64,000 nt of DNA from Albidovulum sediminicola. Lineage in GTDB: Bacteria; Pseudomonadota; Alphaproteobacteria; Rhodobacterales; Rhodobacteraceae. Positions 17,095-43,750 of the stretch are shown here, piece by piece. The DNA lies in contig NZ_JAOWLA010000005.1 of assembly GCF_025751575.1 (NCBI RefSeq), positions 62,001 through 126,000 on the forward strand, read 5' to 3'. The notes beneath the pieces are model-generated. The model was not told the origin of the DNA. It made no database searches and saw only the letters and a program-made list of their open reading frames with translations. Position 1 is the first letter of the stretch. Each line of letters begins with the position of its first letter. The position numbers and the translations under genes are program-made.

Positions 17095-20000
17095 GTCCCG
17101 ACGCGGCCAGATCGGCAAAGGCCCGCTCTAGCGCGTCGCAGAGGATATCGGCCTCCGCCCGTCCGAACACCATCGGCGGCTTGAACTTCAGCACGTTGTC
17201 AAGCGGACCGTCGGTCGAGGCGAGAACCCCCTGCTGGCGGATATGGTTGACGATCCAGCCCGCCTCGGCCGTGGCGGGTTCCAGCGTCTCTTGGTTGCGC
17301 ACCAGCTCGACGCCCGAAAACAGGCCCCGCCCGCGCACATCCCCGATCAGCGGCGCACGCCGCGCCATGTCGCGGAAGCGGTCCAGCATGTAGCGGCCTG
17401 TTTCCAGCGCCGTCTGCTGAAGGCCCTCGCCCTCGATCACGTCGAGGACGGCCATGCCGACGGCCATCGACACCGGGTTGCCGCCGAAGGAGTTGAAATA
17501 CTCCATGCCGTTGGCGAACGTCGCGGCAAGTTCGCGTGTGGTGACGACGGCAGCAAGGGGGTGGCCGTTGCCGATGGGCTTGCCCATCACCACGATATCC
17601 GGAACGACGCCCTGCAACTCGAACCCCCAGAAGGTCTCGCCCACGCGACCGAAGCCACATTGCACCTCATCCGCGATGCAAAGCCCGCCTGCGGCGCGGA
17701 CCTGTTCGTAAACCGATTTCAGGTAGCCGTCGGGATAGACGACCTGCCCGCCCACGCCCGAGATGCTTTCGGCGATGAAGGCGGCGGCGGATGTACCGGT
17801 CTTGGCCCGGACCGCTTCAAGACAGCGCGCCACATCGCCCGCATAGGCCCGTCCCGAAGCCTCGGACATGCCCTTGTGGGGGCCGCGGTAGGGGTCGGGG
17901 AAGGCCGCGATCTCGACGAAGTCGGGCTGGGGATAGCCGCCCTTGCGCTTGAACTTGTAGGGGCTGACATCGACCATGCCGCCCGAGTTGCCGTGATAGG
18001 CCCAGTCGAGCACCACGGTCGATTTCTTGCCCATGGCCGTGCGCGCGATGCGCAGCGCCAGCTCGTTCGCCTCGGTGCCCGAGTTCACGAAATAGGCGAC
18101 CTTAAGATCGCCGGGCAGTTTCGCGGTCAGCCGTTCGGAATAGTCGAGGATCAGCTCGCTCAGGTAGCGGGTGTTGGTGTTCAGGATCCCGGCCTGCCGC
18201 GCGATCGCGGCCACCACCTGCGGGTTGCAGTGCCCGACATGGGTGATGTTGTTGACCGCGTCCAGATAGCGCCGGCCGGAATGGTCGATCAGCCAGGGCC
18301 CCTCGCCCCGCACCATCTTCAGCTTCTCCGCGTAGGAGATCGACAGCGACGGGCCGATGGCGCGCGCGCGCCGCGCCAGAAGCTCGGCGGGGGGATGCGG
18401 GTCGAGGGTGAAGCTTTCGGGCGCGAGCCGCAGGATCAGGTTCGGGTCGATGCAGATGTCGGACCAGACATCCCAGTGGCTGTCATGCCCGACGCCGAAG
18501 AAGTTGCCCCCGTCCTGCGCCAGCATGTCGGTCATGATCTGGAAATGCAGATGCGGCGACCAGCCACCGTTTTCGTGCCAGTCGCCGAGGTGGCCGACAA
18601 GCTGTCCCGCCTCGATCCGTTGGCCCGTCTGGGCGAGACCCGGAAGTGTCCCCGCAAGGTGGCCGTAGAGGGTCCAGAACCGCACCCCTTCCGGGGTCGC
18701 GTGCTCAAGGATCAGCGTGTGGCCGTAGTCGAGCGGGTCGGCATTGTAGGCGACGAAGGCCACCGTGCCTGCGAGCGGCGCGTGAACCGGCGTGCCCTTG
18801 GCGGCAAAGATGTCGATGCCGGTGTGGCGCGTGCGCCGCTCGGGGCTGGCGGCGTCGGCGAACTGGTCGCTGGCATAGACCGAGCGCCGCTCGCCATAGG
18901 GACCGAAGCCGTAGAAGGCGACATTCTCGGGCAGGTTCGCGGGGCGCTGGCCCGCGAACCACGCATCAAAGGCGCGGTCGGAAAAGGCCGGCATGCCGGG
19001 ATGCGAGCCATCGGTCAGAAGCGCGATCCGTGCGGCGCGGCCGGGGTCGGGCTGGACGACGGGGATCGGCTTCGCCTGCGCCAGATGCGCGCGCACCGAC
19101 GCCGCGGCGCGGGTCGCGTCAAACCCCGCAGCCTTGCGGCAGAGCCCCACCATGAATTCCGGATCAACCCGCTCCAGCCGCTCCAGCACCGCGAAGGCGG
19201 GGCCCTGGCTGATCGTCAGATAGGCGTTGTCCGGGTGCTCCTTCGCCCGGCGGGAGGAGATGCAGACGCTCATCGCCAGCCGCATCCGCATCAGGTCGAA
19301 AAGCACCTCCGCCTCGTCCTCAGTAATCGGAAAGTCCGCGACATAGCCACGAATCACCGCCCGGATAGCGGCATAAAGGTCGGGTGCGTCGAGGATCGCA
19401 TAGGCCAGCGTGATCGCCAGTTCGTTGATCGTGCGCCCGTGGGCCATGTCGCCGAAGTCGATCAGGCCGGCGACATGGTCCGGGTTCGCGCCGTCAACGA
19501 TCACGTTGTTGTCGTTGGCGTCCTGATGCAAGACCGATGCGCGAAGTCCGGGCAGGCGCGGCGCGACGCGGGTGCGGTAGCGCCCGAAGAGCGCGCCCAC
19601 CAGCGCGCGGCGGGCCGGATCAGCGATGTCATCGGCCCAGCTTTCCACCCCGGCCGCGTTGTCCAGCGACCACAGGAACCCCTCGCGGAAGGCCGCCGGA
19701 TGGCCGAAGCCCTGCATCGCGCGCGTCAGCCGGCCCATGAAGCCCCCCAGGCTTTCAAGCTGCCCAAGGCTCCTCGGCGCAGACGACAGCAGCGGCCCCT
19801 CGACCCAGGTGACAAGCCGCACCTGGCCCAGGCCGTGGCCGGTTTCGGCCTCGGCCCCGTCGCTGCCCTCAAGGGTCGGGACGACGCGCGGGATCCCGGC
19901 CATGCCCTGCCCCTCCAGGTGCTTCATCACCGCCGTCTGGAGCGCGATCTGCCCCCTGTCCTCCCCCGCGTTCGAGATCTTGAGGACATAGCGCCGCCCC

Positions 20001-20137
20001 CCGGCCTCCAGCCGCGCGTTCTGATCGCGTTCGGAGATCAGCGGATGCAGCTTCCCTTCCAGCCCCCAATGCCGGCGGGCGAGTTCGGCGAGCCGGTGAT
20101 CGTCAAGCGCGGGCGGTGGGGTCTCAAAAGCGGACAT
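17078..20137 (-). CDS. Fusion protein: APH-type kinase + M23 peptidase domain + class III aminotransferase/phospholyase
   Basis: 1019 residues with three enzymes in one chain. Residues about 1-340 are an aminoglycoside/choline-kinase-like domain (HQD at 204-206, DFGD at 227-230). Residues about 410-560 are an M23 domain with its metal residues intact (HTGID, H438 and D442; HLHF, H529/H531). Residues about 570-1019 are a class III PLP enzyme ([12 protein letters not shown]; likely PLP lysine K853 in MGKPIGNG). The kinase and PLP parts resemble the hydroxylysine kinase/phospholyase and ethanolamine-phosphate phospholyase families, so phosphorylation then elimination of an amino alcohol is likely. 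The role of M23 is unclear. ATG at 20137 has AGGAAG upstream. Confidence 0.88.
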
Positions 20138-23453: not shown

Positions 23454-23465
23454 AGGCCGGGAGCC

Positions 23466-28117: not shown

Positions 28118-28131
28118 AGGCCGGGAAGATT

Positions 28132-28815: not shown

Positions 28816-28822
28816 GGGTGCG

Positions 28823-29416: not shown

Positions 29417-29492
29417 GAGTCGTGTCCGGGCTGGCAAAACGGTCCGGCTTCCGCTATCGCCATCTGCAACATTTCCGAAACGGGCGAAGACG

Positions 29493-30587: not shown

Positions 30588-30590
30588 GAC

Positions 30591-31691: not shown

Positions 31692-32018
31692 ATGCCCGCA
31701 CTCGTCCGCCTTTACATCGTCAACGTCCTGATCGGCTTCGCGCTCTCCGCCGTCTTCACGGCGCTGCTGCTCTGGCTCGATGTGGCCGGGCTGCGCCATC
31801 TGGCCACCGCCGTGAACGGCGGCTGGATCGGCGTCCTGATGCTTTTCGTGTCGAACGGCATCGTCTTTGCCGGCGTGCAGTTCGCCATCACGATCATGGG
31901 CATGGCCGAGGACGGCCAAGGCGGTGGCGGCACCCGGCGCCCGGTGGGGCGCCTGCCGGAGTTGGTGCGGGCCGTGGCCCGTGGCACCAAGGACACAAGG
32001 CCCCTCAACCGGCCCTGA
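31692..32018 (+). CDS. Small two-segment membrane protein, unknown function
   Basis: 108 residues with two hydrophobic stretches (about 5-27, VRLYIVNVLIGFALSAVFTALLL in part, and about 45-68, IGVLMLFVSNGIVFAGVQFAI), a polar Gly-rich linker and a basic tail. It resembles uncharacterised proteins often found beside nusB in Rhodobacteraceae. ATG at 31692 follows GGAGGTCGCC, a strong ribosome site. Its 3' end overlaps the convergent kinase gene by 14 bp. Confidence 0.75.
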   Translation: MPALVRLYIVNVLIGFALSAVFTALLLWLDVAGLRHLATAVNGGWIGVLMLFVSNGIVFAGVQFAITIMGMAEDGQGGGGTRRPVGRLPELVRAVARGTKDTRPLNRP

Positions 32019-32907
32019 CCGCCGCAAGGTGGCGGGCAAACTCCGGCGTCGCCATCAACGCCTTGCAGCGGGCGAAGCGGCCGTCGGCATAGGCGCGGAA
32101 ATCGTCCGCCGGATTGCCGTTGGCAAGCTGGATCAGCCCCCAGAGCGTCCAGAGCAGGTCGCACATCGCCTTGTAGATGACCATCCTTCCCCGGTCGCCC
32201 GCCCCCGGCGCCCCCTCGAAATAGGCGCGCAGCATCTCTTCATCCTGATCCGCGTCGAAGCCCCCCTCGACCGAGAGATCGCCCAGATCCCACATCGGAT
32301 CATTCATGCCGGAATATTCCCAATCGACGATCCACATCCGCCCCCCGGTATCGAGGAAATTTTCGCACAACGGGTCGCAGTGGCAGGGCGCCAGCGGCAG
32401 CGGATGGGCCGAAAGCGCGGCGCGCACCGCCTCGGCCTCACGCACAACGTCGTGATAGCCTTCGGGCAGGGCCACGTCCTTGGTCGCGAGGATGCCAAGG
32501 TAGTCGTCGATCATCGCGAAAAGCTCGAACCGGAAGGGGAAGACCGCGCCCGACTCGTGCAGCTTGCGGAACGCCTGCCCGGCCCGGCCCGGCGCGCCCG
32601 GCCGGGTTCGGAAATGTTCGGGGCTCATCGTGACGGCCCCGTCGATGAAGCGCGTCACCATCACGCCCGTCGCCTCGTCCACATGGATGACCTCGGGGCT
32701 GACACCGGCGCGCGCGGCTTCCCGTGCGGCGACGGCCTCGTTGGCGCGGTCGATGTATTCCTCGGTGCCCTTGCCGGGAATGCGCAGGCAGAAATCCCCC
32801 GCGCGAAAGACAAGGTTCGTAAGCCCGCCAAGCCGCTGCGGTTCCCCCGCCCCCCGAAGCGCGGCAATGCCCGCGATGGCGTCGCGCGCCAGATCCAGAT
32901 CGCTCAT
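32005..32907 (-). CDS. Choline/ethanolamine-kinase-like phosphotransferase, copy 2
   Basis: 300-residue APH/choline-kinase-fold enzyme, expected to phosphorylate a small hydroxyl substrate with ATP. N-terminal GGLTNLVFRAGDFCLRIPG (about 28-46) is the nucleotide loop, HCDPLCENFL the catalytic loop and WIVDWEYSGMNDPMWDLGD the metal loop (DxE). ATG at 32907 overlaps the stop of the upstream flavoprotein (ATGA). It is the last gene of the seven-gene locus. The substrate is unknown; choline, an N-methylethanolamine or similar is plausible. Confidence 0.87.
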   Translation of the reverse strand: MSDLDLARDAIAGIAALRGAGEPQRLGGLTNLVFRAGDFCLRIPGKGTEEYIDRANEAVAAREAARAGVSPEVIHVDEATGVMVTRFIDGAVTMSPEHFRTRPGAPGRAGQAFRKLHESGAVFPFRFELFAMIDDYLGILATKDVALPEGYHDVVREAEAVRAALSAHPLPLAPCHCDPLCENFLDTGGRMWIVDWEYSGMNDPMWDLGDLSVEGGFDADQDEEMLRAYFEGAPGAGDRGRMVIYKAMCDLLWTLWGLIQLANGNPADDFRAYADGRFARCKALMATPEFARHLAAVRAG

Positions 32908-35312
32908 GCCTTCAGCCTTTCCATCTTCGCGTCGTAAAGGCACCGTGGGCCGCGAGTGGCGGCATAGGAGGTGCCGAAGGCTTCGATGGTGAGGCCCTGC
33001 TCGCCCGCCAATTCGGCGGGCAGGTAGGCGAAACCGATGGTCTTGCCCAGGTGGTGCCCATAGCCCGCGCTGGTCAGCGAGGCGACGGGGCGTCCGCCGT
33101 GCAGGACGGTTTCGCCAGAAAGGAAGGGGGCGAACCCCTCCACCGTCAGGGTGACGAGCTTGCGCCGGGGCGCCCCGGCCGCCAGCAGCGCGGCCCGCCC
33201 GGTGAACTCCCCCTTGTCGAGCGCAACGGCAAAGCCCAGGCCTGCTTCCAGCGGCGTAGTCTCGGGCGTGATGTCGGCGGACCAGTAAAGATAGCCCTTC
33301 TCCAACCGGCAGCTTTCGATGGCGCGGTAGCCCGCGTCGCGGATGCCATGGGCCGCGCCCGCCGCCTTCAACGTGTCGTAGACATGGCCTGCGTATTCGG
33401 TCGGGATGTAAAGCTCCCACCCAAGCTCGCCGACATAGCCCACCCGGACAGCCAGCGCCGGGGCCTGCCCCACCACGATCTCCTGCGCGGAGAGGAACGG
33501 AAAGGCCGTGCTCGACAGGTCCGCATCGGCCACCGAGGACAGCACTTCGCGTGCCTTCGGTCCGCAGATATTCAGGACCGCATGGGCGTTGGTCACGTCG
33601 CGCAGGGCCAGACAGTCCGGCAACTGCCGGGTGATCCAGTTCGCGTCACGCACCCCGAATCCCGAGCCCGTGACGATCAGGAAATCCTCCGTTCCCCGGT
33701 GCAGGATCGTCAGGTCGGCCTCGATCCCGCCGCGCCCATTCAGAAGCTGGGTGTAGATCGCGCGGCCGGGTGGGCCCGAGATATCGGCGGCGGCGATGCG
33801 GTTCAGTGCCGTCTGTGCGCCGGGACCCAAAAGTTCGAATTTTGAAAATGAGGTTTGGTCGATCAGAGCCACACCCTCGCGGATCGCCCGCACCTCGGCG
33901 GCCACGGCAGTGTGCCAGCCGGGCTTGCCCTCGAAGCTGGGGGTGTCGGTGGCGGATGGGTCGGATGCGCTGAACCAATTCGCCCGTTCCCATCCGAACC
34001 GCGCCCCGAACACCGCGCCCGCCGCTTTCAGCGGTTCGAATAAAGGTGATCGCCTAAGACCCCGCCCAGCATGATGTTCTTCGCCCGGCCAGTGCACCTT
34101 GTAATAGGCCCCGTAGGCCTCCACCGCGCGCGCGGCGAGCCAGGCGGCCCGCGCGTGCGGCGCCCCGAAGCGGCGCGCATCGAAGGACCAGAGGTCCAGC
34201 CCCGGGTCGCCATGCAGGATCCAGTTCGCCATCGCCTCCCCCGCCCCGCCCGAGGCGGCGATCCCTGCGGTAAATCCGCAGGCGAGGTAGAAATTATCCA
34301 ATTCTGGCGCAAGACCCATGATCGGCTCGCCATCGGCCGAAACGGGGATCGGGCCGTTGATCACGGTCTTGATACCGGTGTCGTTGAGGACCGGGAGCCG
34401 CTCTGCCGCGGGAAGGGCGAAAAGCTCCAGCCGGTCCATGTTGGCCGGGAAAAGCTCCCTCCCGAAGTCGAAGGGTGCCCACTGGTTCCACAGCGCGCGC
34501 GTGCCATCCTCCCAGCCGCCGATGGCCCAGGACCCGCCGACATCCGGCTTGAGGTAGAAGTTGTGGTCGGGGTCGCGCAGGGTGGTCAGGTTGTCCGGCA
34601 CGTCGAGACCTTTTTCGGTCACGAAGTACTGATGTTCGACCACGCCCGCCGCCACCGGGACCCCCGCCATCGCGCCCACGCGCCGCGCCCAGTAGCCCGC
34701 CGCGTTCACCACGATATCGGCGGAGATCGTCCCATGGTCGGTCACCACGCCCATCGCGCGCCGCCCCTCGACGACGATATCGGTGACGGTCACACCCTCC
34801 TCAATCCGGACGCCACCCCTGCGGGCGCTCGCGGCGAAAGCCATCGTCACGGCGTAGGGGTCGATATAGCCGTCACTCGGAATCCAGGCCGCACCCACGA
34901 CGCCCTTCGGGTCGATATGCGGGAACATCCCCCGCGCCTCCTCGGGGGAGACCAGATGCGCCTCGAAACCGAAGCTTTTTGCCAGTTGGATCGAGCGACG
35001 GATCTCGCTCCACCGCGCGTCAGAGGCCGCAAGACGGAGGGAACCGACCTTCTTCCAGTCGGTCGCCATGCCGGATTCGTCTGCCAGCCGGTCAAAGACC
35101 GCGACAGAGTTCTGCATGAGCCGCGTCAGCGACCGCTTGCCGCGCAACTGCCCCACAAGCCCTGCCGCGTGCCAGGTGGACCCATGCGTCACCTGCGCCT
35201 TTTCCAGCACCAGGACATCGCGTTCGCCCGCGCGCGCCAGGTGATAGGCGATGGCGCAGCCGATGGCGCCCGCGCCGATGATGACGATCCTTGCGTGACG
35301 GTCCGCCTTCAT
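32904..35312 (-). CDS. Dimethylglycine/sarcosine dehydrogenase-like flavoprotein, copy 2
   Basis: 802 residues. The N-terminal DAO-type FAD domain (about 1-400) has IIGAGAIGCAIAYHLARAG and GSTWHAAGLVGQLRG; the His (H48) matches the residue that binds FAD covalently in dimethylglycine dehydrogenase. The C-terminal half is a GcvT-like folate domain (YTQLLNGRGGIEADLTI; ESCRLEKGYLYWSADITPE). Such enzymes oxidise an N-methyl group and pass the carbon to tetrahydrofolate. It overlaps both neighbours by 4 bp and is a paralogue of the gene just upstream, so it may act on a sequential or related substrate. Confidence 0.9.
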   Translation of the reverse strand: MKADRHARIVIIGAGAIGCAIAYHLARAGERDVLVLEKAQVTHGSTWHAAGLVGQLRGKRSLTRLMQNSVAVFDRLADESGMATDWKKVGSLRLAASDARWSEIRRSIQLAKSFGFEAHLVSPEEARGMFPHIDPKGVVGAAWIPSDGYIDPYAVTMAFAASARRGGVRIEEGVTVTDIVVEGRRAMGVVTDHGTISADIVVNAAGYWARRVGAMAGVPVAAGVVEHQYFVTEKGLDVPDNLTTLRDPDHNFYLKPDVGGSWAIGGWEDGTRALWNQWAPFDFGRELFPANMDRLELFALPAAERLPVLNDTGIKTVINGPIPVSADGEPIMGLAPELDNFYLACGFTAGIAASGGAGEAMANWILHGDPGLDLWSFDARRFGAPHARAAWLAARAVEAYGAYYKVHWPGEEHHAGRGLRRSPLFEPLKAAGAVFGARFGWERANWFSASDPSATDTPSFEGKPGWHTAVAAEVRAIREGVALIDQTSFSKFELLGPGAQTALNRIAAADISGPPGRAIYTQLLNGRGGIEADLTILHRGTEDFLIVTGSGFGVRDANWITRQLPDCLALRDVTNAHAVLNICGPKAREVLSSVADADLSSTAFPFLSAQEIVVGQAPALAVRVGYVGELGWELYIPTEYAGHVYDTLKAAGAAHGIRDAGYRAIESCRLEKGYLYWSADITPETTPLEAGLGFAVALDKGEFTGRAALLAAGAPRRKLVTLTVEGFAPFLSGETVLHGGRPVASLTSAGYGHHLGKTIGFAYLPAELAGEQGLTIEAFGTSYAATRGPRCLYDAKMERLKA

Positions 35313-37747
35313 GCCTTCACCTTCAGATTTTCCGGGTCGTAAAGGGGCTGAAGCGCGATGCGTGCCGGGAAGCGTTCGTTCGCGACCACGAGCTCATAGC
35401 TGCCAGATGTCAGGTAGTCGTCGCTGACCCCCTCGGCGTTGCGCACATAGCCGTAGCCGATGGACCGGCCAAGCGTGTAGCCATAACCGCCCGAGGTCAG
35501 GTATCCGACCGCCTGCCCGTCGCGCAGGATCGTCTCCCGCCCGACCAGAACGGCCGCCGGATCGTCCAGCGTGAAACCCGCGAGCCGCTTCTTCAGGGGC
35601 TGACCCGCCACCGCCTCAAGCGCGGCGCGCCCGATGAAGTCGGCGTTGCGGCGCATCTTGACCGCCCAGCCCAGCCCCGCCTCGAAGGGCGTGTCATTGG
35701 GCGTGATGTCCGAGGACCAGGCGCGATAGCCCTTTTCGAGCCGCAGGGACTCGATCGCCCGGTAGCCCACGGGGCGGATGGCGTGATCCGCGCCCGCCGC
35801 CATCAGCGCGTCGAAGACCGCCCCCGTGACGGCGAGCGGCACATGCAACTCCCATCCCAGCTCGCCCACATAGGTGATCCGCAGCGCCCGGACCGTCGCG
35901 CCCGCGATGGAGATCTCGCGGACATGGCCGAAGGGGAAGGCGACATCCGAGACATCGGCATCCGTGACCCGCGCCAGAACCTCCCGCGCGCGCGGCCCCA
36001 TCAGCGACAGCGTCCCCCAGTCCTCGGTGATATCGCGGATGGCGACGTCGCCTTCGGGCAGGTGTTCGGCGATCCAGGCCAGGTCATGGGTACGGAACCC
36101 CGTGCCGGTGACGATGTAGAACCGGTCCTCGGCCAGCCGCGCGACGGTCAGGTCGGCCTCGATCCCGCCGCGGGTGTTCAGAAGCTGCGTGTAGGTCAGC
36201 CGCCCGGGCGCCTTCGTCACGTCATTCGCGCAGACGTAGTCCAGCGCCCGCGCGGCGTCCCGCCCCGTCACCTCGTATTTCGCGAAGGACGACTGGTCGA
36301 ACAGCCCCACCGCCTCGCGGACGTGGCGATGTTCCTCGCCCACATGGGGGAACCAGTTCTGGCGCCCCATGGCGTAGATGTCGCGCGCCTCCACCCCCTC
36401 GGGCGCGAACCAGTTCGGCCGCTCCCACCCCAGCTTCGATCCGAAGACCGCGCGATGGCTCTTGAGCCGGTCATAGAGAGGCGAGGTGATGCGCGGGCGG
36501 CCGGATGTGTATTCCTCGTGCGGGAAACCGATGGTGTAGTGCTTGCCATAGGCTTCGCAGGTACGGTCCGACACCCATTGCTGGTCGCGGTGCATCTGGG
36601 AAAAGCGGCGGATGTCCACAACCCAGAGGTCAAGCGGCGCCTCCTCGTTCACCACCCAGTCCGCCAACACCCAGCCCGCACCGCCGCCCGAGGCGATGCC
36701 AAAGGCGTTGAAGCCCGCGCCGACGTACATGTTCGCGCATTCCTGCGCCGGGCCCAGGATGAAATTTCCGTCCGGCGTGAAGCTTTCGGGGCCGTTGATC
36801 ATCTGCTTGACGCCGACCTCGGCCAGCGCCGGGACCCGCTCGATCGCCTGCACCAGGTGCTGCTCGAAATGGTCGTAGTCGTCCTCGAACAGGTGGAACT
36901 GCCAGTCGTTGGGGATATCGCCCGTGGGCAGAGGCTGGGGGTTCGGTTCATACCCGCCCATGACCAGCCCGCCGACCTCTTCCTTGAAATAGGTCCGCCG
37001 GTCGGGGTCACGGATGGTGGCCGCGTCCGCCGCCAGCCCGTCGATCTTCTCGGTCACGATATACTGATGGCGGACGGCCTGAAGGGGCACGTTGATCCCG
37101 GCCATCGCCCCCACCTGCCGCGCCCACTGCCCGGCGCAGTTCACGACCTTTTCGCAAGCGATCTCGCCTTGCGTAGTCTTGACCGAGGTGATGCGGTTGC
37201 CCTTCATTCCAAAGCCCGTCACCCCGACCCCTTCGAAGATCTTCGCCCCGTGCATGCGGGCCCCCTTGGCCAGCGACTGCGTGATGTCCGAGGGGCTGGC
37301 CTGCCCGTCCGTCGGCAACCAGCTTGCCCCGACAAGGTCCGCAGTCTCCATCAGCGGCCACATGCGCTTGACCTCCGCGGGCGAGATCAGATGCATCTCC
37401 ATCCCGAAGCTTCCCGCGGTCGTGGCCAGCCGCTTGTATTCAGTCCAGCGGTCCTGATTGGTGGCCAGGCGCAGGCAGCCGCTCATCTTCCAGCCGGTCT
37501 CCAGTCCCGTTTCCGCGGCCAGTCCCTTGTAAAGCTCGACCGAGTATTTCAGCACCCGCGTGATCGAGGCGGAGGAGCGCAACTGCCCCACAAGCCCCGC
37601 CGCGTGCCAGGTGGAGCCAGAGGTCAGCCTGCCCTGCTCGATCAGCACGACATCGGCCTTGTGATCGCGCGCCAGGTGATAAGCGGTGGAACAGCCGATG
37701 ATTCCGCCGCCAATGACGACGATCTGGGCATGTGTAGGCAACGTCAT
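35309..37747 (-). CDS. Dimethylglycine/sarcosine dehydrogenase-like flavoprotein, copy 1
   Basis: 812 residues with the same plan as its downstream paralogue: FAD domain (VIGGGIIGCSTAYHLARD; H48 in STWHAAG, the expected covalent-FAD His), then linker and GcvT-type folate domain (YTQLLNTRGGIEADLTV; YRAIESLRLEKGYRAW). I chose ATG at 37747, which overlaps the stop of kinase copy 1 (ATGA); the longer frame is antisense or out-of-frame kinase sequence. The substrate is likely a secondary or tertiary N-methyl amine. The overlapping starts indicate tight co-expression with both kinases. Confidence 0.9.
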   Translation of the reverse strand: MTLPTHAQIVVIGGGIIGCSTAYHLARDHKADVVLIEQGRLTSGSTWHAAGLVGQLRSSASITRVLKYSVELYKGLAAETGLETGWKMSGCLRLATNQDRWTEYKRLATTAGSFGMEMHLISPAEVKRMWPLMETADLVGASWLPTDGQASPSDITQSLAKGARMHGAKIFEGVGVTGFGMKGNRITSVKTTQGEIACEKVVNCAGQWARQVGAMAGINVPLQAVRHQYIVTEKIDGLAADAATIRDPDRRTYFKEEVGGLVMGGYEPNPQPLPTGDIPNDWQFHLFEDDYDHFEQHLVQAIERVPALAEVGVKQMINGPESFTPDGNFILGPAQECANMYVGAGFNAFGIASGGGAGWVLADWVVNEEAPLDLWVVDIRRFSQMHRDQQWVSDRTCEAYGKHYTIGFPHEEYTSGRPRITSPLYDRLKSHRAVFGSKLGWERPNWFAPEGVEARDIYAMGRQNWFPHVGEEHRHVREAVGLFDQSSFAKYEVTGRDAARALDYVCANDVTKAPGRLTYTQLLNTRGGIEADLTVARLAEDRFYIVTGTGFRTHDLAWIAEHLPEGDVAIRDITEDWGTLSLMGPRAREVLARVTDADVSDVAFPFGHVREISIAGATVRALRITYVGELGWELHVPLAVTGAVFDALMAAGADHAIRPVGYRAIESLRLEKGYRAWSSDITPNDTPFEAGLGWAVKMRRNADFIGRAALEAVAGQPLKKRLAGFTLDDPAAVLVGRETILRDGQAVGYLTSGGYGYTLGRSIGYGYVRNAEGVSDDYLTSGSYELVVANERFPARIALQPLYDPENLKVKA

Positions 37748-38631
37748 GATGAGGTCTTTCCGTGTCGGGTGTGATAGCGGTCGAGGGCGGCGCCGAGCCG
37801 CCCCAGGTAGTCGCGCGCGTGGGCGTCGTAGTCGGCGCCGGGCGCGGCCAGGAAGATCTCCGACACCATCGCCCACATCGCCTCCCGCGCGAGCGAGGCG
37901 CATTGCATCGCCTCGAAGGCGCGCAGCAGCGCGGCATCGGGCGCGGCGCCGAAATAGGCGACCAGCAGCGCGCGCGCCTCGTCATCAGACATCCCCGCGT
38001 TGGAGGCCGCGCCTGCGAGATCGAACATCGCCGTCCCGAAGGCCGCATATTCAAAGTCGATCAGCCACACCCGCCCCCCGGCATCCTCAAGGAAATTGCC
38101 GGGCAAAAGGTCGTGATGGCCGAAGATGATCGGCAGCGGCACCTGCGCGGCCTCCATCTCGGCCGCGACTGCGGTCAGCCAAGGCAGCTCGGGTGCAAAC
38201 CGGCTGCCGTTGTCCGCCAGCGTCCGCGCGTAGTCGCGGATCACATGGAAAACCCAGAAAATCGCGCCGGGGCCCGAGACCTCGGCCGGCATGTCGGTAT
38301 GGAAGGCCTGCAAAAGCCGGGCGATGCGGTCGGGGTTGGCGCGCATGTCGACCTCCTCCCAGGTCCGCGCCTCCAGGAAGGCAGAGACCATGACGCCCGG
38401 CCCGGCATGTTCGACCGCGGGCGCGAAACCCGTCCGGTGCGCCGCGCGCGCAGCGATCACCTCGGACGCGCGGCTGACATGGTGAAAGGGGAAGTCCTTG
38501 CCGAAGCGCACGACATGCGCGCCCGCCGCATCACGCACTTTCCAGCTCTCGTTCGAAAGCCCCCCAGACAACCGCTCGGCCCGGACCTCTCCCTGCCAGC
38601 AGGGCAGCGCCCGGATGCGTCTCAGGCTCAT
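37744..38631 (-). CDS. Choline/ethanolamine-kinase-like phosphotransferase, copy 1
   Basis: 295 residues of the APH/choline-kinase fold: LSGGLSNESWKVRD near the N-terminus, FGHHDLLPGNFLEDAGG as catalytic loop and VWLIDFEYAAFGTAMFDLAG as metal loop. It is only distantly alike to copy 2, so the pair need not share a substrate. ATG at 38631 has GGGAGAGGG directly upstream. It lies between the importer genes and the two flavoproteins, which suggests that the imported compound is phosphorylated at or soon after entry. Confidence 0.87.
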   Translation of the reverse strand: MSLRRIRALPCWQGEVRAERLSGGLSNESWKVRDAAGAHVVRFGKDFPFHHVSRASEVIAARAAHRTGFAPAVEHAGPGVMVSAFLEARTWEEVDMRANPDRIARLLQAFHTDMPAEVSGPGAIFWVFHVIRDYARTLADNGSRFAPELPWLTAVAAEMEAAQVPLPIIFGHHDLLPGNFLEDAGGRVWLIDFEYAAFGTAMFDLAGAASNAGMSDDEARALLVAYFGAAPDAALLRAFEAMQCASLAREAMWAMVSEIFLAAPGADYDAHARDYLGRLGAALDRYHTRHGKTSS

Positions 38632-38640
38632 CCCCTCTCC

Positions 38641-38675
38641 CTTTCTTCATTGCCCCAAATACCCCCGCCGGAGGC
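38641..38675 (-). repeat. Rhodobacteraceae-type dispersed intergenic repeat
   Basis: On the minus strand GCCTCCGGCGGGGGTATTT, then GGGGCAATGAAGAAAG. I recognise this as a variant of a short element found many times between genes in Rhodobacteraceae genomes. It lies between the permease stop and kinase copy 1 and overlaps the kinase ribosome-binding region. It is the only copy I found in the window. Confidence 0.55.
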
Positions 38676-38713
38676 TTCCGCAGCCGACACCCGCGCGCCT
38701 GCCGCAAGCCCGG

Positions 38714-40705
38714 TCATGCCGCCTCCAGCCCCAGCCGCGCCCGCGCCGCGCGGGCGGAGGCGGAGATCAGCCGGTCCGTGATGATGGCGATGAAGGCCAC
38801 CGCCAGGCCCGCGACCAGCCCGCGCCCCGGGTCGGCCTTGGTCAGCGCGATATAGACCTCCTGCCCCAGGTCGCGCGTGCCCACGAGCGCGGTGATCACC
38901 AGCATCGAGAGCGCGAACATCACGGTCTGGTTCAGGCCCAGCAGGATCTCGGGCAGCGCCAGCCGCAGCTTGATCCGCCACAGGATCTGCCCCTGCGTGC
39001 AGCCCATCGCGCGCCCCGCCTCGACAAGGCGCGGATCGACGCTCTTCAGCCCCAGCACCGTGTAGCGGACGGCGGGTACCAGGGCGTAGGCCACGACCGC
39101 GATCATGGCGGTGAAGTCGCCCACACGGAAAAGCATCACCGCAGGCATGAGGTAGACGAAGGAGGGCAGCGTCTGAAGCGTGTCGATGATGACCCGCACG
39201 GGTGCCCAGATCGCATCGCGCTCGGCGGATAGGATACCGACCGGCAGGCCGATCAGCATCGCGAAAACGGTCGAGATCCCGCAAAGATAGACGGTGATCG
39301 CGGCCTTTTCCCACTGGCCGGTCGCCGCGATCAGCCCCGCCAGCGCCGCGACCAGAAGGCCCAGCCGCCAGCCACCAAGCCGCCAGCCGCCATAGGCCAG
39401 AAGGGCGACCACGCCCGCCCAGGGCAACCCGCCCAGGAACCGCTTGAACGGCACCAGGAGGTTCAGCAGCACGGCGTTCTTCACCGCCTCGATCGTGTCG
39501 AAGAAATTGACGTTGATCCATTCCACGACCCGGCTCCAGAAGGTACCGGTCGACAGTTCATAGGCCGCCGGCCAACGCTGGAGCGCCGGAAGCGCCAGGC
39601 CCGCGAGCCCCGCGACGAGGATCAGCGCCAGCCCGGACAGAAGGTAGGGATGGCGCGCGACGATCCCGCCCACCGGCGCCGGTTCGGGCCGGAGCCGAGC
39701 GAATGCCTGGCTCAGCCGGTCCAGCGCGACGGCCAGCGCGACGATGGCCAGCCCCGCCTCAAGCCCCGCGCCGAAGTCGAGCCTGCGAAGCGCGGCCAGC
39801 ACGTCGAAGCCAAGCCCCCCCGCCCCGATCATGGAGGCGATGATGACCATGTTCAGGCTCAGCATGATCACCTGATTGACCCCCACCATCAGCGGGTCCT
39901 TCGAGGCAGGCACCATCACCCGCCAAAGCATCTGGCGGCGCGTGCAGCCGACCATGCGGCCAAGATCGGTCAGCTCCGAGGGGACACGCCGAAGCGCCAG
40001 TTCCGTGATCCGCGTCATCGGCGGCATGGCGTAGATCAGCGTCGCCACCACCGCCGCCGTGGGGCCGAAGCCGAACAGGATCAGGATCGGCACCAGGTAG
40101 GCAAAGACCGGGATTGTCTGCATCAGGTCCAGCACCGGGCGGATCGCACGCTCGAACCAGGGGTGGCGGAAGGCGAGGATGCCCAGCAGCAGCCCGCCCG
40201 CGACGCCCAGCGGGACCGCCACCAGGATCGAGGCCAGCGTGACCATCGCGCTTTGCCACTGGCCGAAGACCAGAACGAAGATCAGGCAGCCCGCCACCAG
40301 CGCGGCCAGTCGCACGCCCCCCGCGTACCGGCCCAGAAGCGCGCCCGAGCCGATGACCGCAACCCAGGACAGCGGCGGCAGGATCTGCACCGCCTGCGAC
40401 CCCTCCCCCTTCAGGAAGCCGCTCGACAGCAGGCTAAGGACGAAGCGGTAGGGCACGTCCAGAACCGCCGCGATGAAGCGCGTGAACTCGGCAAAGGTGA
40501 ACAGGCCGAAGCTCGCCTCGTTCAGAAGCCATTTGGTGAAGGCGGAGATCCAGCGCGCGGCGGGAATGCGCATCGACTTCGGGTAGTCGAAGGCCCAGGG
40601 AAGAAGCCCCTCACCATAGCTCCAGAGCGCCCAGAAAAGCACCAGCGCCACGACCCAGCCCGTCCAGACCGGAAAGCGGCGCGTGATCCTTGGGCGGGTC
40701 GCCAT
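38714..40705 (-). CDS. ABC importer permease, two fused ProW-like domains
   Basis: 663 residues holding two complete binding-protein-dependent permease domains. The first EAA-type loop is ELALRRVPSELTDLGRMVGCTRRQ and the second is LGLKSVDPRLVEAGRAMGCTQGQ, each followed by similar helices. Normal ProW permeases have one domain and act as dimers. A fused form is known in the TMAO importer TmoXVW of Ruegeria, which also shares the gene order seen here. It should form the membrane channel for the binding protein at 41825 and the ATPase at 40709. Confidence 0.92.
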   Translation of the reverse strand: MATRPRITRRFPVWTGWVVALVLFWALWSYGEGLLPWAFDYPKSMRIPAARWISAFTKWLLNEASFGLFTFAEFTRFIAAVLDVPYRFVLSLLSSGFLKGEGSQAVQILPPLSWVAVIGSGALLGRYAGGVRLAALVAGCLIFVLVFGQWQSAMVTLASILVAVPLGVAGGLLLGILAFRHPWFERAIRPVLDLMQTIPVFAYLVPILILFGFGPTAAVVATLIYAMPPMTRITELALRRVPSELTDLGRMVGCTRRQMLWRVMVPASKDPLMVGVNQVIMLSLNMVIIASMIGAGGLGFDVLAALRRLDFGAGLEAGLAIVALAVALDRLSQAFARLRPEPAPVGGIVARHPYLLSGLALILVAGLAGLALPALQRWPAAYELSTGTFWSRVVEWINVNFFDTIEAVKNAVLLNLLVPFKRFLGGLPWAGVVALLAYGGWRLGGWRLGLLVAALAGLIAATGQWEKAAITVYLCGISTVFAMLIGLPVGILSAERDAIWAPVRVIIDTLQTLPSFVYLMPAVMLFRVGDFTAMIAVVAYALVPAVRYTVLGLKSVDPRLVEAGRAMGCTQGQILWRIKLRLALPEILLGLNQTVMFALSMLVITALVGTRDLGQEVYIALTKADPGRGLVAGLAVAFIAIITDRLISASARAARARLGLEAA

Positions 40706-40708
40706 GGC

Positions 40709-41749
40709 TCAGCCCCCCAGCATCAGCGCGACGACGTCATCGCGGTAAAGATGGCCCAGCGTTTCCCCCTGTGCCCCGGTGACGCGCAGCGCCAATGCGC
40801 CGTCAAGGAACATCGGCGCGGCTTCCGCCACGGTGGTGCGGGCAGGCACGATACCCGCGGGCGGCTCGCCCTTTGCCGGGCGCATGGCGGTCTCGACCTT
40901 CACCACCTTGGCGCGCGGCACCGCGCGGGTGAACTCGCGCACATAGTCCGTCGCGGGGTTGAGGACGATGTCCTCGGGCGTGCCCTGCTGGACGATCGCG
41001 CCGTCCTTCATGATGGCGATGCGGTCGGCCAGGCGGATCGCCTCGTCGAAATCATGGGTGATGAAGACGATGGTCTTTTTCAGCACCGATTGCAGGCGGA
41101 TGAACTCGTCCTGCATCTCGCGCCGGATCAGCGGGTCGAGGGCGGAGAACGGCTCGTCCAGGAACCACAGCTCGGGCTCCACGGCCAGAGACCGGGCGAT
41201 GCCGACCCGTTGCTGCTGCCCGCCCGACAACTGCCGTGGCAGGGCGTTTTCGCGCCCCGCCAACCCTACCAGCGCGATCATCTTGCGCGCTCGGTCTTCG
41301 CGTTCGGCCCGCGCCACGCCCTGCACATCGAGCGGGAAGGCTACGTTGTCGAGAACGCTCAGGTGCGGCAGAAGCGCGAAGTGCTGGAAGACCATGCCCA
41401 TCTTGTGGCGCCGGATCTCGATCATCTCGGCCTCGCTGGCCGACAGGAGGTCGCGCCCGTGGAACAGGACCTCGCCCGCCGTCGGTTCGACCAGGCGCGA
41501 CATGAGCCGGACGAGCGTCGATTTCCCCGACCCCGAAAGGCCCATGATCACGAAGATCTCGCCCTCGCGCACCTGCAGGTTAACATCGCGCACCGCAGGG
41601 ACGAGGCCCGCCGCCGACAGCCGCCCCGCCGTTGCCTCCGCCCCCAGCGCGGTAAGCGTTTCGCGGGCGCGCGGGCCGAACAGCTTCCAGAGGTTCCGGC
41701 AGACGAGCTTCGCGCCTTCGGATGGATCATTGGCAGGCGTTTCGGTCAT
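40709..41749 (-). CDS. ABC importer ATPase, ProV/OpuAA-like
   Basis: 346 residues. Walker A is GLSGSGKST, the signature LSGGQQQRVGIARS, Walker B WFLDEPFSALDP and the switch His FITHDFDEA. The N-terminal extension (CRNLWKLFGPRA) and C-terminal CBS-like region (about 275-346) are typical of the betaine-type ProV subclass. It powers uptake with the permease 3 bp downstream. A strong hairpin lies between it and the binding-protein gene. Confidence 0.93.
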   Translation of the reverse strand: MTETPANDPSEGAKLVCRNLWKLFGPRARETLTALGAEATAGRLSAAGLVPAVRDVNLQVREGEIFVIMGLSGSGKSTLVRLMSRLVEPTAGEVLFHGRDLLSASEAEMIEIRRHKMGMVFQHFALLPHLSVLDNVAFPLDVQGVARAEREDRARKMIALVGLAGRENALPRQLSGGQQQRVGIARSLAVEPELWFLDEPFSALDPLIRREMQDEFIRLQSVLKKTIVFITHDFDEAIRLADRIAIMKDGAIVQQGTPEDIVLNPATDYVREFTRAVPRAKVVKVETAMRPAKGEPPAGIVPARTTVAEAAPMFLDGALALRVTGAQGETLGHLYRDDVVALMLGG

Positions 41750-41775
41750 GGGCAGTCCTGAGGGCGCAACTTCCC

Positions 41776-41800
41776 GGCCGCCCGCGCGCCGCGGGCGGTC
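41776..41800 (-). promoter_or_regulatory. Strong hairpin between binding protein and ATPase genes
   Basis: Perfect 9-bp GC stem CCGCCCGCG/CGCGGGCGG (41778-41786 with 41790-41798), loop CGC, with a further pair at the base. No T-run follows on the minus strand. Hairpins at this place in binding-protein operons usually protect the upstream mRNA or partly stop reading, so that more binding protein than ATPase is made. Confidence 0.6.
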
Positions 41801-41824
41801 CGGCGTTTCATCCGGTCGGGTTCG

Positions 41825-42778
41825 TTACTGGCCGATCCAGGCCTTCCAGCGGCCCTCGTTCGCGGCCATCCAGCCGGCGGTGACCTGCTCAACGGTCTGG
41901 CCGTTCAGATCGACCTCGGTGATCATCGCGCCCATCTCGGCGTTGTCGATGGTGAAGGCCTTGATGGCCTCGTAGGCGCCCGGCCACTTGTCCTTCACCC
42001 CGGCCCAGCCGACCTTCCAGATCTCGCCGAAGGGCTTGCCGCAGTCATAGGCCATGTCGGGGTTCATGCCCCAAGCGGGATCGTTGTAGCATTCGGCCGT
42101 GTATTCGGGGAATTCGACCCATTCGCCCTCGTATTTCGCGGGCGCCCAATGCGGCGCATAGATCCAGAGCATGATGGGCGCCTGACGCTGGTAGGCGCTC
42201 TCAAGCTCGGCGAAAAGCGCGGCATCCGTGCCCGCGTGGATCACCTCGAACGGCAGGTCCAGGGCCTCGACCCGTTCATCGTCAAAGCCGCCCCAGGTCA
42301 CGGGTCCGCCCAGATAACGCCCTTTCGGCGCGGTTTCGGCGGTCGAGAACGCCTCGGCGCAGGCCTCGTCCTTGAGCGCCTCCCAGTTGGGCAGACCGGG
42401 GCATTTTTCCTTCATGTAGGTGGGATACCACCATTCCTCCTTGGCCTTCATGCCCGTCGGGCCGAACACCTCGGTCTTGCCGGTGGCGGTGGAGGCGTCC
42501 ATCGCGTCGCGCCCCGTCGTCTCCCACATCTCCATCGCGACGTGGAGGTCGCCGCTTTCCAGCCCCGCGAACTGCGCGAGGTAGTCGGCCTGGACGTATT
42601 CGACGTTGTAGCCCGCCTGTTTCAGCACCTCTCCCATCAGGTTGGTGGTGATGAGCTGGCCGGTCCAGTCATGCAGGGTCAGCTTGATCGGGTCGTTCGA
42701 CTCCTGCCCCCAGCCCGCGGCCGCCGTCATGGCAAGCACAGAGGCGGCAAGGCCGCACTTCAAGAATGTCTTTGGCAT
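41825..42778 (-). CDS. Glycine-betaine/TMAO-type substrate-binding protein (OpuAC family)
   Basis: 317-residue periplasmic binding protein. The signal peptide (about 1-26, FLKCGLAASVLAMTAAAGWG) is followed by LTLHDWTGQLITTNLMGEVL. It is rich in Trp and Tyr where betaine-type proteins form an aromatic cage (MEMWETTG; EEWWYPTYM; WIYAPHWAPAKYEGEW), so a methylated, positively charged ligand is likely. I chose ATG at 42778 with AGGGAGA upstream; the longer frame adds an unlikely 29-residue tail. First gene of the seven-gene locus, divergent from the DeoR-type regulator. Confidence 0.92.
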   Translation of the reverse strand: MPKTFLKCGLAASVLAMTAAAGWGQESNDPIKLTLHDWTGQLITTNLMGEVLKQAGYNVEYVQADYLAQFAGLESGDLHVAMEMWETTGRDAMDASTATGKTEVFGPTGMKAKEEWWYPTYMKEKCPGLPNWEALKDEACAEAFSTAETAPKGRYLGGPVTWGGFDDERVEALDLPFEVIHAGTDAALFAELESAYQRQAPIMLWIYAPHWAPAKYEGEWVEFPEYTAECYNDPAWGMNPDMAYDCGKPFGEIWKVGWAGVKDKWPGAYEAIKAFTIDNAEMGAMITEVDLNGQTVEQVTAGWMAANEGRWKAWIGQ

Positions 42779-42900
42779 GGCAATCTCCCTGTTCGGCCAG
42801 CTTGTGCCAGCCATCCTGGGACGACCCTGTCCGGCCAAGTTCCCCGTCGGCGTCCCTCGAGCCAAGTAGGGACCGGCAGGGCGATTCCGTCAATCCCGTA

Positions 42901-42920
42901 TTGTGGTTTTTTGTGATTTT
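42901..42920. promoter_or_regulatory. Candidate operator: two 10-bp direct repeats
   Basis: TTGTGGTTTT directly followed by TTGTGATTTT, an AT-rich pair in the 190-bp control region between the binding-protein gene and the DeoR-type gene. DeoR/GlpR-family proteins often bind short direct T-rich repeats, so this may be the operator for both directions. Confidence 0.4.
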
Positions 42921-42994
42921 TGCGCCCGTTTGCTGACCGATGATTGTGCAGTTGCGAGAGATTTCATATGCTCTGCGGAAAATACGGTCACACC

Positions 42995-43750
42995 ATGCTC
43001 TCCAAACGCCACACCGACATTCTTCAGATCCTTGAGGCCGAAGGCTCGGTCTCGATCGCGGCACTGGCCGAACGGCTGGGCGTCTCGCTTGAAACCGTGC
43101 GTCGCGACGTGAAGCCCTTAAGCGAGGCGGGCCGGGTCGTGCGCATTCACGGCGCGGTCGGCCTGGCCGGCCAGATCGGCGAGGCGCCGTTCCAGAAGCG
43201 GATGCGCGAAAACGCCGCCGCCAAGCAGGCAATCGCGCGGGCGGTCACGGAGATGATCCGCGATGGGGACTCGGTGATGCTCGATACCGGAACGACGACC
43301 AGCTACGTCGCGCGCGAACTGACACGGCGGCGGCGGCTGACGGTGGTCACGAACTCCTCCGACATCGCGCGGACGCTGGCGACGGTCAACGGCAACCGGG
43401 TTTACATGGCGGGGGGCGAGTTGCGCAGCGATTCCGGCGCGGCCTTCGGCAAGTCGGCGCTGGATTTCGTCAGCCGATTTGCCGTGACCCACGCGATCAT
43501 CTCGGCCGGCGCGGTGGACCAGGACGGCGTCATGGACTTCGACCTGGAGGAGGCGGAGATCGGGCGCCTGCTGCTGACCCGTGCCGAACGGCGCATGGCC
43601 GTCACCGACCATAGCAAGTTCGGCCGCCGCGGGCTGATCCACGTCTGCGGGTTCGCGGACCTAGACATGCTGGTGACCGACCGCGCGCCCCCGTCCGCCA
43701 TCGCCGCCGCGCTGGAGGCGGCGGGCACGGCGCTGAAGGTCGCGCCGTAG
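42995..43750 (+). CDS. DeoR/GlpR-family transcriptional regulator
   Basis: 251 residues. The N-terminal helix-turn-helix is SIAALAERLGVSLETVRRDV (about 19-38), and the C-terminal DeoRC effector domain has DTGTTTSYVARELTRR, VVTNSSDIA and ISAGAVDQDGVMDFDLEEAEI. Members sense phosphorylated metabolites, which fits the two kinases in the divergent operon. I chose ATG at 42995 (MLSKRHTDILQIL) because the family starts there; ATG at 42968 is the alternative and neither has a strong ribosome site. It ends 7 bp before the convergent FAD oxidoreductase. Confidence 0.9.
   Translation: MLSKRHTDILQILEAEGSVSIAALAERLGVSLETVRRDVKPLSEAGRVVRIHGAVGLAGQIGEAPFQKRMRENAAAKQAIARAVTEMIRDGDSVMLDTGTTTSYVARELTRRRRLTVVTNSSDIARTLATVNGNRVYMAGGELRSDSGAAFGKSALDFVSRFAVTHAIISAGAVDQDGVMDFDLEEAEIGRLLLTRAERRMAVTDHSKFGRRGLIHVCGFADLDMLVTDRAPPSAIAAALEAAGTALKVAP

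What the first reader, a model, noticed from the sequence alone, without database searches (positions are those of the whole stretch)
32005..43750. Seven-gene uptake and breakdown locus: betaine/TMAO-type importer, two kinases, two DMGDH-like flavoproteins, DeoR regulator
Seen: binding protein, ATPase, fused permease, kinase, two tandem folate-linked flavoproteins and a second kinase on one strand. The last five junctions among kinase 1, both flavoproteins and kinase 2 are ATGA overlaps. A DeoR-type gene is divergent. Known: the importer class binds methylated ammonium compounds; DMGDH-type enzymes demethylate amines to tetrahydrofolate; DeoR-type proteins usually sense phosphorylated metabolites. 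Inference: the compound is imported, phosphorylated and demethylated as a phospho-ester, and the phospho-compound is the inducer. Ordinary choline or betaine pathways do not use kinases together with DMGDH enzymes.
Basis: partly seen in the sequence, partly recalled or inferred. Interest (0 to 1): 0.75.

Follow-up and report, generated by a model that had tools for sequence, protein, structure and literature searches.

The report
Phospho-demethylation pathway for methylated ethanolamines
A conserved bacterial gene cluster appears to import N-methylated ethanolamines, attach a phosphate, strip the methyl groups into one-carbon metabolism and pass the remaining ethanolamine to a known degradation route, a pathway I could not find described in the papers I could search.

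Summary
The eight genes are real: ProX/V/W-type importer, kinase 1, flavoprotein 1, flavoprotein 2, kinase 2 and a divergent DeoR regulator. Three junctions, not five, are ATGA overlaps. Across 127 mapped loci the core is kinase 1-flavoprotein 1 (adjacent in 116 of 121 loci holding kinase 1), usually with DeoR; flavoprotein 2-kinase 2 is an optional second pair. Evidence for N-methylated ethanolamines: (1) in seven loci an EutH ethanolamine permease stands where no ProXVW is found; (2) kinase 2 keeps the choline-cage residues of LicA; (3) 10 of 22 roseobacter-type loci add an inositol-monophosphatase-family gene, so kinase and phosphatase would bracket the demethylase; (4) a Salipiger plasmid runs importer-kinase-flavoprotein-ETF-FolD-PurU into ethanolamine gamma-glutamylation genes. 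The window's genome has a complete operon of that ethanolamine type; 31 of 33 kinase-1 genomes have its key enzyme against 61 of 116 others, and the remaining two have a phosphoethanolamine-lyase-like fusion, as the window does. Best reading: import, phosphorylation, folate-coupled demethylation of the phosphoester, then dephosphorylation or phospho-lyase cleavage.

The parts
42995..43750 (+). DeoR/GlpR-type regulator, 251 aa, ATG start
   Evidence: HTH_DeoR and DeoRC; gene. DeoR relative within eight genes of kinase 1 in 81 of 101 loci with at least 5 kb on each side.
42902..42927 (-). Putative DeoR operator: three direct repeats GGKCA-N2-AAA-N2-CACAAAA-N2-CCACA just upstream of a TTGAC -35-like box
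   Evidence: 51 of 91 DeoR intergenic regions match with at most 4 mismatches, 0 of 1,820 dinucleotide shuffles; window 1 mismatch. 17 roseobacter-type regions have 4-10 mismatches.
41825..42778 (-). ProX-like binding protein (317 aa)
   Evidence: OpuAC 171.8 bits; best solved relative 4xz6 = TmoX, 245 bits. Aromatic box W38, W85, W162, W205, Y207, W211 and E114 identical in 56 of 56 rows.
40709..41749 (-). ProV-like ATPase (346 aa)
   Evidence: TIGR01186 proV 344.2 bits, cut-off 326.6.
38714..40705 (-). Fused ProW-like permease (663 aa)
   Evidence: Two BPD_transp_1 stretches; TIGR03416 409.3 bits, cut-off 363.
37744..38631 (-). Kinase 1, choline/ethanolamine-kinase family (295 aa)
   Evidence: APH and Choline_kinase over cut-off; AlphaFold model pLDDT 94.3, best Foldseek PDB matches 3dxq, then P. 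vivax ethanolamine kinase 2qg7 and LicA.
35309..37747 (-). Flavoprotein 1, DMGDH-family (812 aa)
   Evidence: Pfam; human DMGDH 5l46 554 bits; covalent-FAD His48, dyad His227/Tyr253 and Asp532 invariant in 19 rows of flavoproteins 1 and 2.
32904..35312 (-). Flavoprotein 2, DMGDH-family (802 aa), 45% identical to flavoprotein 1
   Evidence: Pfam; rat DMGDH 4pab 496 bits; same catalytic residues.
32005..32907 (-). Kinase 2, choline/ethanolamine-kinase family (300 aa)
   Evidence: 3dxq 547 bits, LicA 103 bits. LicA residues T29, D176, Y197, E213, W251, W254, Y268 kept in 61-63 of 63 rows; V178 is Leu in 63 of 63.
17078..20137 (-). Not in the operon, possible downstream step: fused APH kinase - M23 - class III PLP protein (1019 aa)
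   Evidence: Pfam; PLP part best solved match 6tor human ethanolamine-phosphate phospho-lyase 442 bits, then 5g4i phospholyase 346 bits; NF004799 1203.9 bits, cut-off 1128.

Best explanation
The operon is a catabolic module for N-methylated ethanolamines (N,N-dimethyl- and/or N-methylethanolamine). ProXVW imports the amine (in relatives EutH stands instead). Kinases of the choline/ethanolamine-kinase type phosphorylate the hydroxyl. The phosphate traps the compound and gives the DMGDH-type flavoproteins an anionic handle in place of the carboxylate of dimethylglycine; they oxidise N-methyl groups, pass electrons to ETF and the carbon to tetrahydrofolate, leaving phosphoethanolamine. This is dephosphorylated (an IMPase-family gene in roseobacter relatives) and enters the gamma-glutamylation route of ethanolamine, or is cleaved by an ethanolamine-phosphate phospho-lyase-like enzyme. 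DeoR represses from one operator and is probably released by a phosphorylated intermediate. Shown by sequence: genes, families, conserved catalytic and cage residues, operator, linkage and co-occurrence. Inferred: substrate identity, phosphorylation before demethylation, phosphoester as flavoprotein substrate, inducer, division of labour between the two pairs (kinase 2-flavoprotein 2 for the more methylated, kinase 1-flavoprotein 1 for the less methylated amine).
For: EutH (PF04346, 416.9 bits) beside flavoprotein 1 in 7 loci (L030, L066, L072, L081, L087, L099, L170; six on the same strand), none of them with ProX, flavoprotein 2 or kinase 2 in the stretch. Kinase 2 cage (residues from PMC4364537). 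Importer box with TmoX F106 replaced by Gly/Ala and W222 by Tyr (PMC8918994). IMPase-family gene in 10 of 22 roseobacter-type loci with at least 5 kb on both sides, 0 of 79 of the other type; the Salipiger one resembles histidinol-phosphatase HisN, 233.6 bits, under the cut-off 275.15. Salipiger plasmid: IMPase-DeoR | ProXVW-kinase 1-flavoprotein 1-ETF beta-ETF alpha (annotated 'FAD-binding protein')-FolD-PurU-amidohydrolase-GS-like-ALDH-Fe-ADH-GlyA-serine ammonia-lyase, the enzyme set of the Phaeobacter ethanolamine operon (PMC10132767). The window's genome has RpiR-amidohydrolase-TRAP x3-GS-ALDH-ADH complete at C24. GS-like enzyme in 31 of 33 kinase-1 genomes against 61 of 116 others, p 4.7e-6; GS or phospho-lyase-like in 33 of 33 against 68 of 116, p 4e-7, not corrected for kinship.
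Against: No substrate was tested. No gene for a phosphatase lies in the window's operon, and none of the 79 loci of its own type has the IMPase. In 39 of those 79 loci neither ProX nor EutH is within eight genes of kinase 1. Kinase 1 has lost Glu213 (Asn in 122 of 122) and one Trp of the LicA cage and has invariant Arg249-Glu250, so its substrate may differ from choline-like amines. I could not examine the flavoprotein pocket for phosphate binding. The Eto-type linkage with all enzymes is seen in one record (Salipiger). Exclusive use of EutH or ProXVW is weak statistically (5 and 35 of 79, both 0; not tested for significance). A phosphoester demethylase of this family is without precedent known to me.
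Confidence: 0.6

Rival explanations
1. Same substrate, other order: the flavoproteins demethylate the free amine and the kinases phosphorylate the product ethanolamine for a phospho-lyase.
For: Kinase 1 has a modified cage with Asn for Glu213 and Glu250 where kinase 2 has Trp253 (hhalign), which could suit a less methylated amine; Foldseek ranks an ethanolamine kinase second; the window carries a phospho-lyase-like fusion and phospho-lyase-like proteins occur in 12 of 33 kinase-1 genomes against 15 of 116, p 0.004.
Against: The window's phospho-lyase-like protein has its own kinase domain. In roseobacter-type loci a phosphatase joins the kinase, which would be futile if phosphorylation came after demethylation. 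Kinase 2 has the full methyl-ammonium cage.
Confidence: 0.14
2. The substrate is another N-methylated hydroxy-amine, for example an N-methyl hydroxy-amino acid or amino sugar, and the family resemblance to choline kinase is only general.
For: Arg249-Glu250 invariant in 122 of 122 kinase 1 rows; APH-family kinases take many alcohols; IMPase-family enzymes take many phosphates; DeoR-type proteins often sense sugar phosphates (general knowledge).
Against: EutH in 7 loci, LicA cage in kinase 2, TmoX-like box in the importer, linkage to ethanolamine catabolism in Salipiger.
Confidence: 0.13
3. The module serves choline: kinases make phosphocholine and the flavoproteins act on it or on later free dimethylglycine and sarcosine.
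For: Kinase 2 has a complete choline cage; the permease scores over the cut-off of the choline-permease model TIGR03416.
Against: A flavin amine oxidation needs a free electron pair on nitrogen, so quaternary phosphocholine cannot be demethylated this way (general knowledge). At least five other own-genome paralogues score higher against human DMGDH than either flavoprotein, and flavoproteins 1 and 2 fall with three own paralogues in a 100/100 clade apart from human DMGDH and nine others (midpoint root). The binding protein scores far below the choline-binding model TIGR03414 (30.1 against 379 bits).
Confidence: 0.08
4. Detoxification or salvage rather than catabolism, for example removing methylated phospho-alcohols that leak from lipid turnover.
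For: 39 of 79 loci of the window's type have no ProX or EutH near by; kinase 2 is paired with a SAM methyltransferase gene in 33 of 79 such loci.
Against: Where present, high-conservation uptake genes share the operon and the operator.
Confidence: 0.05

Closest known systems
Dimethylglycine dehydrogenase / dimethylglycine oxidase family (5l46, 4p9s, 1pj5)
   Same: Domain order, covalent-FAD His, catalytic His/Tyr dyad, folate-domain Asp, Ala instead of the oxidase Pro in STWHAAGL.
   Different: 34-36% identity to human DMGDH; separate clade from it on the tree; always beside a kinase rather than beside betaine demethylation genes in the loci mapped.
Choline/ethanolamine kinases: LicA, Mesorhizobium loti 3dxq, P. 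vivax ethanolamine kinase
   Same: Fold, Brenner-type motif, cage in kinase 2. 3dxq is a close relative of kinase 2 (547 bits).
   Different: Here in a catabolic operon, not in cell-wall or lipid synthesis; kinase 1 lacks Glu213 and one Trp.
TmoX (TMAO-binding protein of Ruegeria pomeroyi, 4xz6)
   Same: Best solved relative of ProX; four of the pocket residues W55, W102, E131, W177 kept.
   Different: F106 is Gly/Ala, F220 is Trp, W222 is Tyr, which suggests another, probably larger ligand.
Roseobacter ethanolamine route (EtoX TRAP and gamma-glutamylation, PMC10132767)
   Same: Its enzyme families directly follow the module in Salipiger and the full operon type is in the window's genome.
   Different: Starts from free ethanolamine and has no kinase or demethylase; here it would be the downstream part.
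Ethanolamine-phosphate phospho-lyase (6tor) and bacterial phospholyase 5g4i
   Same: C-terminal domain of the fusion at 17078-20137 matches at 442 and 346 bits.
   Different: Fused to an APH kinase and an M23 domain; hydroxylysine-phosphate lyase activity cannot be excluded.

Membership tests
DMGDH-type folate-linked flavoprotein demethylases | DAO + FAO_M + GCV_T + GCV_T_C domains | tested here: met
   Both flavoproteins, over cut-offs
DMGDH-type folate-linked flavoprotein demethylases | Covalent-FAD His, His/Tyr dyad, folate-domain Asp | tested here: met
   Alignments; invariant in 19 rows (14 flavoprotein 1, 5 flavoprotein 2)
Dimethylglycine dehydrogenase proper | Closest own-genome relative of known DMGDH | tested here: not met
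   Human DMGDH scores 505-521 bits with flavoprotein 1 and 430-464 with flavoprotein 2, but 556-612 with five other own paralogues; separate clade
Dimethylglycine dehydrogenase proper | Activity on dimethylglycine | not testable with these tools
   -
Choline/ethanolamine kinase (kinase 2) | Choline_kinase domain and LicA choline-pocket residues | tested here: met
   58.4 bits, cut-off 29; seven residues in 61-63 of 63 rows, V178 replaced by Leu
Choline/ethanolamine kinase (kinase 1) | Same pocket residues | tested here: inconclusive
   Asp, Tyr197 and one Trp kept; Glu213 is Asn in 122 of 122; one Trp lost; Tyr268 position is Tyr in 114 and His in 8 (window His). Which Trp is lost differs between alignments
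Methyl-ammonium binding proteins (OpuAC/TmoX class) | Aromatic box | tested here: met
   Invariant in 56 rows
TmoX proper | Full TMAO pocket incl. F106, F220, W222 | tested here: not met
   Gly/Ala, Trp, Tyr at these places
GntI guanitoxin kinase | Score over the NCBIfam cut-off 357 | tested here: not met
   117.8 and 154.7 bits
Eto ethanolamine operon in the window's genome | RpiR, amidohydrolase, TRAP trio, GS-like, ALDH, Fe-ADH together | tested here: met
   G000:C24, L239; substrate not tested
EutBC ethanolamine ammonia-lyase route | EutB present | tested here: not met
   0 matches in the own genome; 1 of 33 kinase-1 genomes against 10 of 116, p 0.46

The most novel reading that the evidence does not exclude
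A phosphate is used as a removable handle: a kinase and a phosphatase bracket a new clade of DMGDH-type flavoproteins that demethylate phospho-dimethyl- and phospho-monomethylethanolamine, so that methylated ethanolamines from membrane lipids and industry feed both the folate pool and the ethanolamine route in many Alphaproteobacteria.
Probability: 0.5. Interest if true: 0.78.

Novelty: new variant of a known kind. Interest (0 to 1): 0.62.

Why it matters
Methylethanolamines are head groups of methylated membrane lipids, breakdown products of choline compounds and industrial chemicals; I found no described bacterial gene set that consumes them through phosphoesters (searches, open-licence PMC papers only). 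If true it adds a phosphorylated-substrate branch to the DMGDH family, assigns function to a kinase family with an orphan crystal structure (3dxq), and links lipid head-group nitrogen to folate one-carbon metabolism. It is directly testable with a handful of purified proteins.

Tried and rejected
Pathway completed by a class III PLP enzyme next door: the gene upstream of DeoR in L039 is PbfA, a phosphonate enzyme (677 bits, cut-off 525), with PhnW/PhnA/PhnY-like neighbours judged by eye; L040 holds a 93% identical gene. Rejected as part of the module.

Adenosyl-B12 ethanolamine lyase as the end of the route: EutB absent from the own genome.

Regulon expansion with the operator: only one site in the own genome (in one search, with 3 mismatches allowed, the backward control also gave one match), so no further target genes.

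Shinella linkage (L035, L226): GS-like, RpiR and amidohydrolase genes lie beside DeoR, but no ALDH/ADH of the route in the 30-kb stretch; not counted as evidence.

Pocket geometry from models: the tools gave no coordinates to the script box, so flavoprotein 1 (pLDDT 81.9, weak around residue 44-50 that carries the FAD His) was not used further and no fold search was run on it.

Literature: ten paper searches. No listing described this module. PMC4744692 on Roseobacter choline metabolism has no occurrence of 'kinase' in its main text.

Not examined: loci L179 and L180 (the weak, distant hits) gave no gene map. Rows dropped: L022 was left out of the first kinase alignment because its reference held a stop codon; the same genome's locus is in the maps as L146. 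In the tally 20 of 121 loci with less than 5 kb on a side were set aside; some species may be counted twice, because named and unnamed collections overlap.
Full report
Observation. The genes are present at the stated coordinates, with the families named. Gene order from the divergent promoter: proX, proV, fused proW, kinase 1, flavoprotein 1, flavoprotein 2, kinase 2 (minus strand), and DeoR on the plus strand. Three junctions are ATGA overlaps; the finding's 'five' is wrong. The host is a 4.13-Mb Rhodobacteraceae-type genome; the nearest named genome in the scan is Defluviimonas sp. WL0002 (L036; 85-94% identity for the eight proteins).

What is conserved. The next gene on the same strand is flavoprotein 1 in 116 of 121. 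Among 101 loci with at least 5 kb on both sides, 79 are of the window's type (kinase 1 at least 55% identical) and 22 of a roseobacter type. Window type, within eight genes of kinase 1: flavoprotein 1 in 78, DeoR 67, ProX 35, EutH 5, kinase 2 44, flavoprotein 2 9, SAM methyltransferase 33, IMPase 0; ProX with EutH 0, neither 39. Roseobacter type: flavoprotein 1 19, DeoR 14, ProX 14, EutH 0, kinase 2 8, flavoprotein 2 8, IMPase 10. Flavoprotein 2 never occurs without kinase 2 (17 of 17). In some roseobacter-type loci the pair flavoprotein 2-kinase 2 is a unit of its own beside a DeoR gene (L156, L157, L164, L184). So the finding's locus is two kinase-flavoprotein pairs behind one importer. Kinase 1 is found in 33 of 149 genomes of the family and 24 of 398 of the phylum, 23 of these in the same class.

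Regulation. Between DeoR and proX (or kinase 1 where the importer is missing) lie three direct repeats directly before a TTGAC box. At most 4 mismatches to GGKCANNAAANNCACAAAANNCCACA: 51 of 91 regions, 0 of 1,820 shuffles; the window has 1 mismatch; the 17 roseobacter-type regions have 4 to 10, so the motif in this form belongs to the window's type. The own genome has one site. The operon is thus a small closed regulon.

Clue 1, the importer. ProX is closest to TmoX among solved structures. The TMAO pocket listed in PMC8918994 (passages read) maps to W38, W85, G89, E114, W162, W205, Y207; all but G89 (52 Gly, 4 Ala) are identical in 56 rows. The methyl-ammonium box is kept and the pocket is remodelled. 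In seven loci EutH follows or adjoins flavoprotein 1 and no ProX, kinase 2 or flavoprotein 2 is in the stretch; EutH is the ethanolamine permease family. Two unrelated importers for one module, one for methyl-ammonium compounds and one for ethanolamine, intersect at methylated ethanolamines.

Clue 2, the kinases. In kinase 2 the LicA pocket (PMC4364537, passages read) is complete but for V178 to Leu. Kinase 1 keeps catalytic Asp174, Tyr195 and one Trp, but Glu213 is Asn in 122 of 122 rows and, by profile-profile alignment, Glu250 stands where kinase 2 has Trp253; an earlier profile alignment pairs its Trp the other way. Kinase 1 may therefore take a less methylated amine. Its model matches 3dxq, P. 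vivax ethanolamine kinase and LicA best.

Clue 3, the flavoproteins. Both keep the residues needed for covalent FAD, amine oxidation and folate transfer (DMGDH facts from PMC5082570, passages read; DMGO residue numbers also from its reference list). They are not the genome's best DMGDH candidates and belong with three own paralogues to a clade apart from human DMGDH and nine others (midpoint root, long branches present). The genome has 14 FAO_M proteins.

Clue 4, what follows. Ten of 22 roseobacter-type loci (and L155, L162, L177 with shorter stretches) hold an inositol-monophosphatase-family gene; the Salipiger copy is nearest to histidinol-phosphatase, an amino-alcohol phosphatase, under that model's cut-off. 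In Salipiger abyssi plasmid pPABY1 one strand reads ProXVW, kinase 1, flavoprotein 1, ETF genes, FolD, PurU, amidohydrolase, GS-like, ALDH, Fe-ADH, GlyA, serine ammonia-lyase, with IMPase and DeoR divergent. The middle block equals the enzyme set of the Phaeobacter ethanolamine operon (PMC10132767, passages read). The window's genome holds an operon with the full set including the TRAP transporter. This suggests: methyl groups to methylene-tetrahydrofolate, ethanolamine to gamma-glutamyl compounds and glycine, and in Salipiger both joined by GlyA to serine and pyruvate.

Co-occurrence in 149 family genomes (thresholds chosen by me): GS-like enzyme 31 of 33 with kinase 1, 61 of 116 without (p 4.7e-6); phospho-lyase-like 12 of 33 and 15 of 116 (p 0.004; six of the 27 genomes match only with the PLP part at their best); either 33 of 33 and 68 of 116 (p 4e-7); EutB 1 of 33 and 10 of 116 (p 0.46). 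Kinship was not corrected for; nearly every genome is from a different genus (148 genera).

The window's second piece. At 17078-20137, about 12 kb away behind unrelated genes, lies an APH-M23-PLP fusion whose PLP part matches human ethanolamine-phosphate phospho-lyase best. A shorter APH-PLP fusion is on contig C22. They could cleave phosphoethanolamine, but hydroxylysine phosphate is an alternative, and the nearness may be chance.

Mechanism. Kinase plus phosphatase in one gene cluster makes sense only if the phosphate is needed for the step between them; the enzyme between them is the flavoprotein. I therefore favour demethylation of phosphoesters. This remains an inference: no assay exists, the phosphatase is absent from the window's type of locus, and the flavoprotein pocket could not be inspected.

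Novelty. Six searches aimed at this pathway listed no paper that describes it; only open-licence PMC text was searched. I rate it a new variant of a known kind: an uptake-and-demethylation operon with a phosphorylated intermediate.

Noticed in passing
window 17078-20137 (-); own genome C22 (L224:7311-9632): Two fused kinase / class III PLP proteins in one genome, one with an M23 peptidase domain between.
   Followed up: partly
L035, L060, L077 and 30 other loci: In rhizobial-type loci kinase 2 is paired with a divergent SAM methyltransferase (Methyltransf_11); methyltransferase and flavoprotein 2 never occur together (0 of 101). Unexplained.
   Followed up: partly
window 38654-38675 (-): 22-bp element between permease and kinase 1 with 19 matches in the genome at up to 2 mismatches, 0 for the backward control; looks like a dispersed intergenic repeat.
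   Followed up: partly
window 43758-45014 (-): FAD oxidoreductase convergent with DeoR, nearest to L-pipecolate oxidase AmaA (438 bits, under the cut-off 600).
   Followed up: no
L039 775-4875, L040: Phosphonate-degradation genes (PbfA; others by eye) directly upstream of the module in two related MAGs.
   Followed up: partly
L217, L218 (own genome C11, C69): Two further tandem pairs of DMGDH-like flavoproteins, each beside an MttB-family methyltransferase gene.
   Followed up: partly
window 22383-31624: Riboflavin synthesis genes and nusB next to the operon, recognised by eye from translations; no family search run.
   Followed up: no
L061, L050, L051, L058, L080, L081: An amidohydrolase gene with nucleoside-type ABC permease clusters close to the module in several rhizobial-type loci (clusters 7, 23, 24; names by eye).
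   Followed up: no
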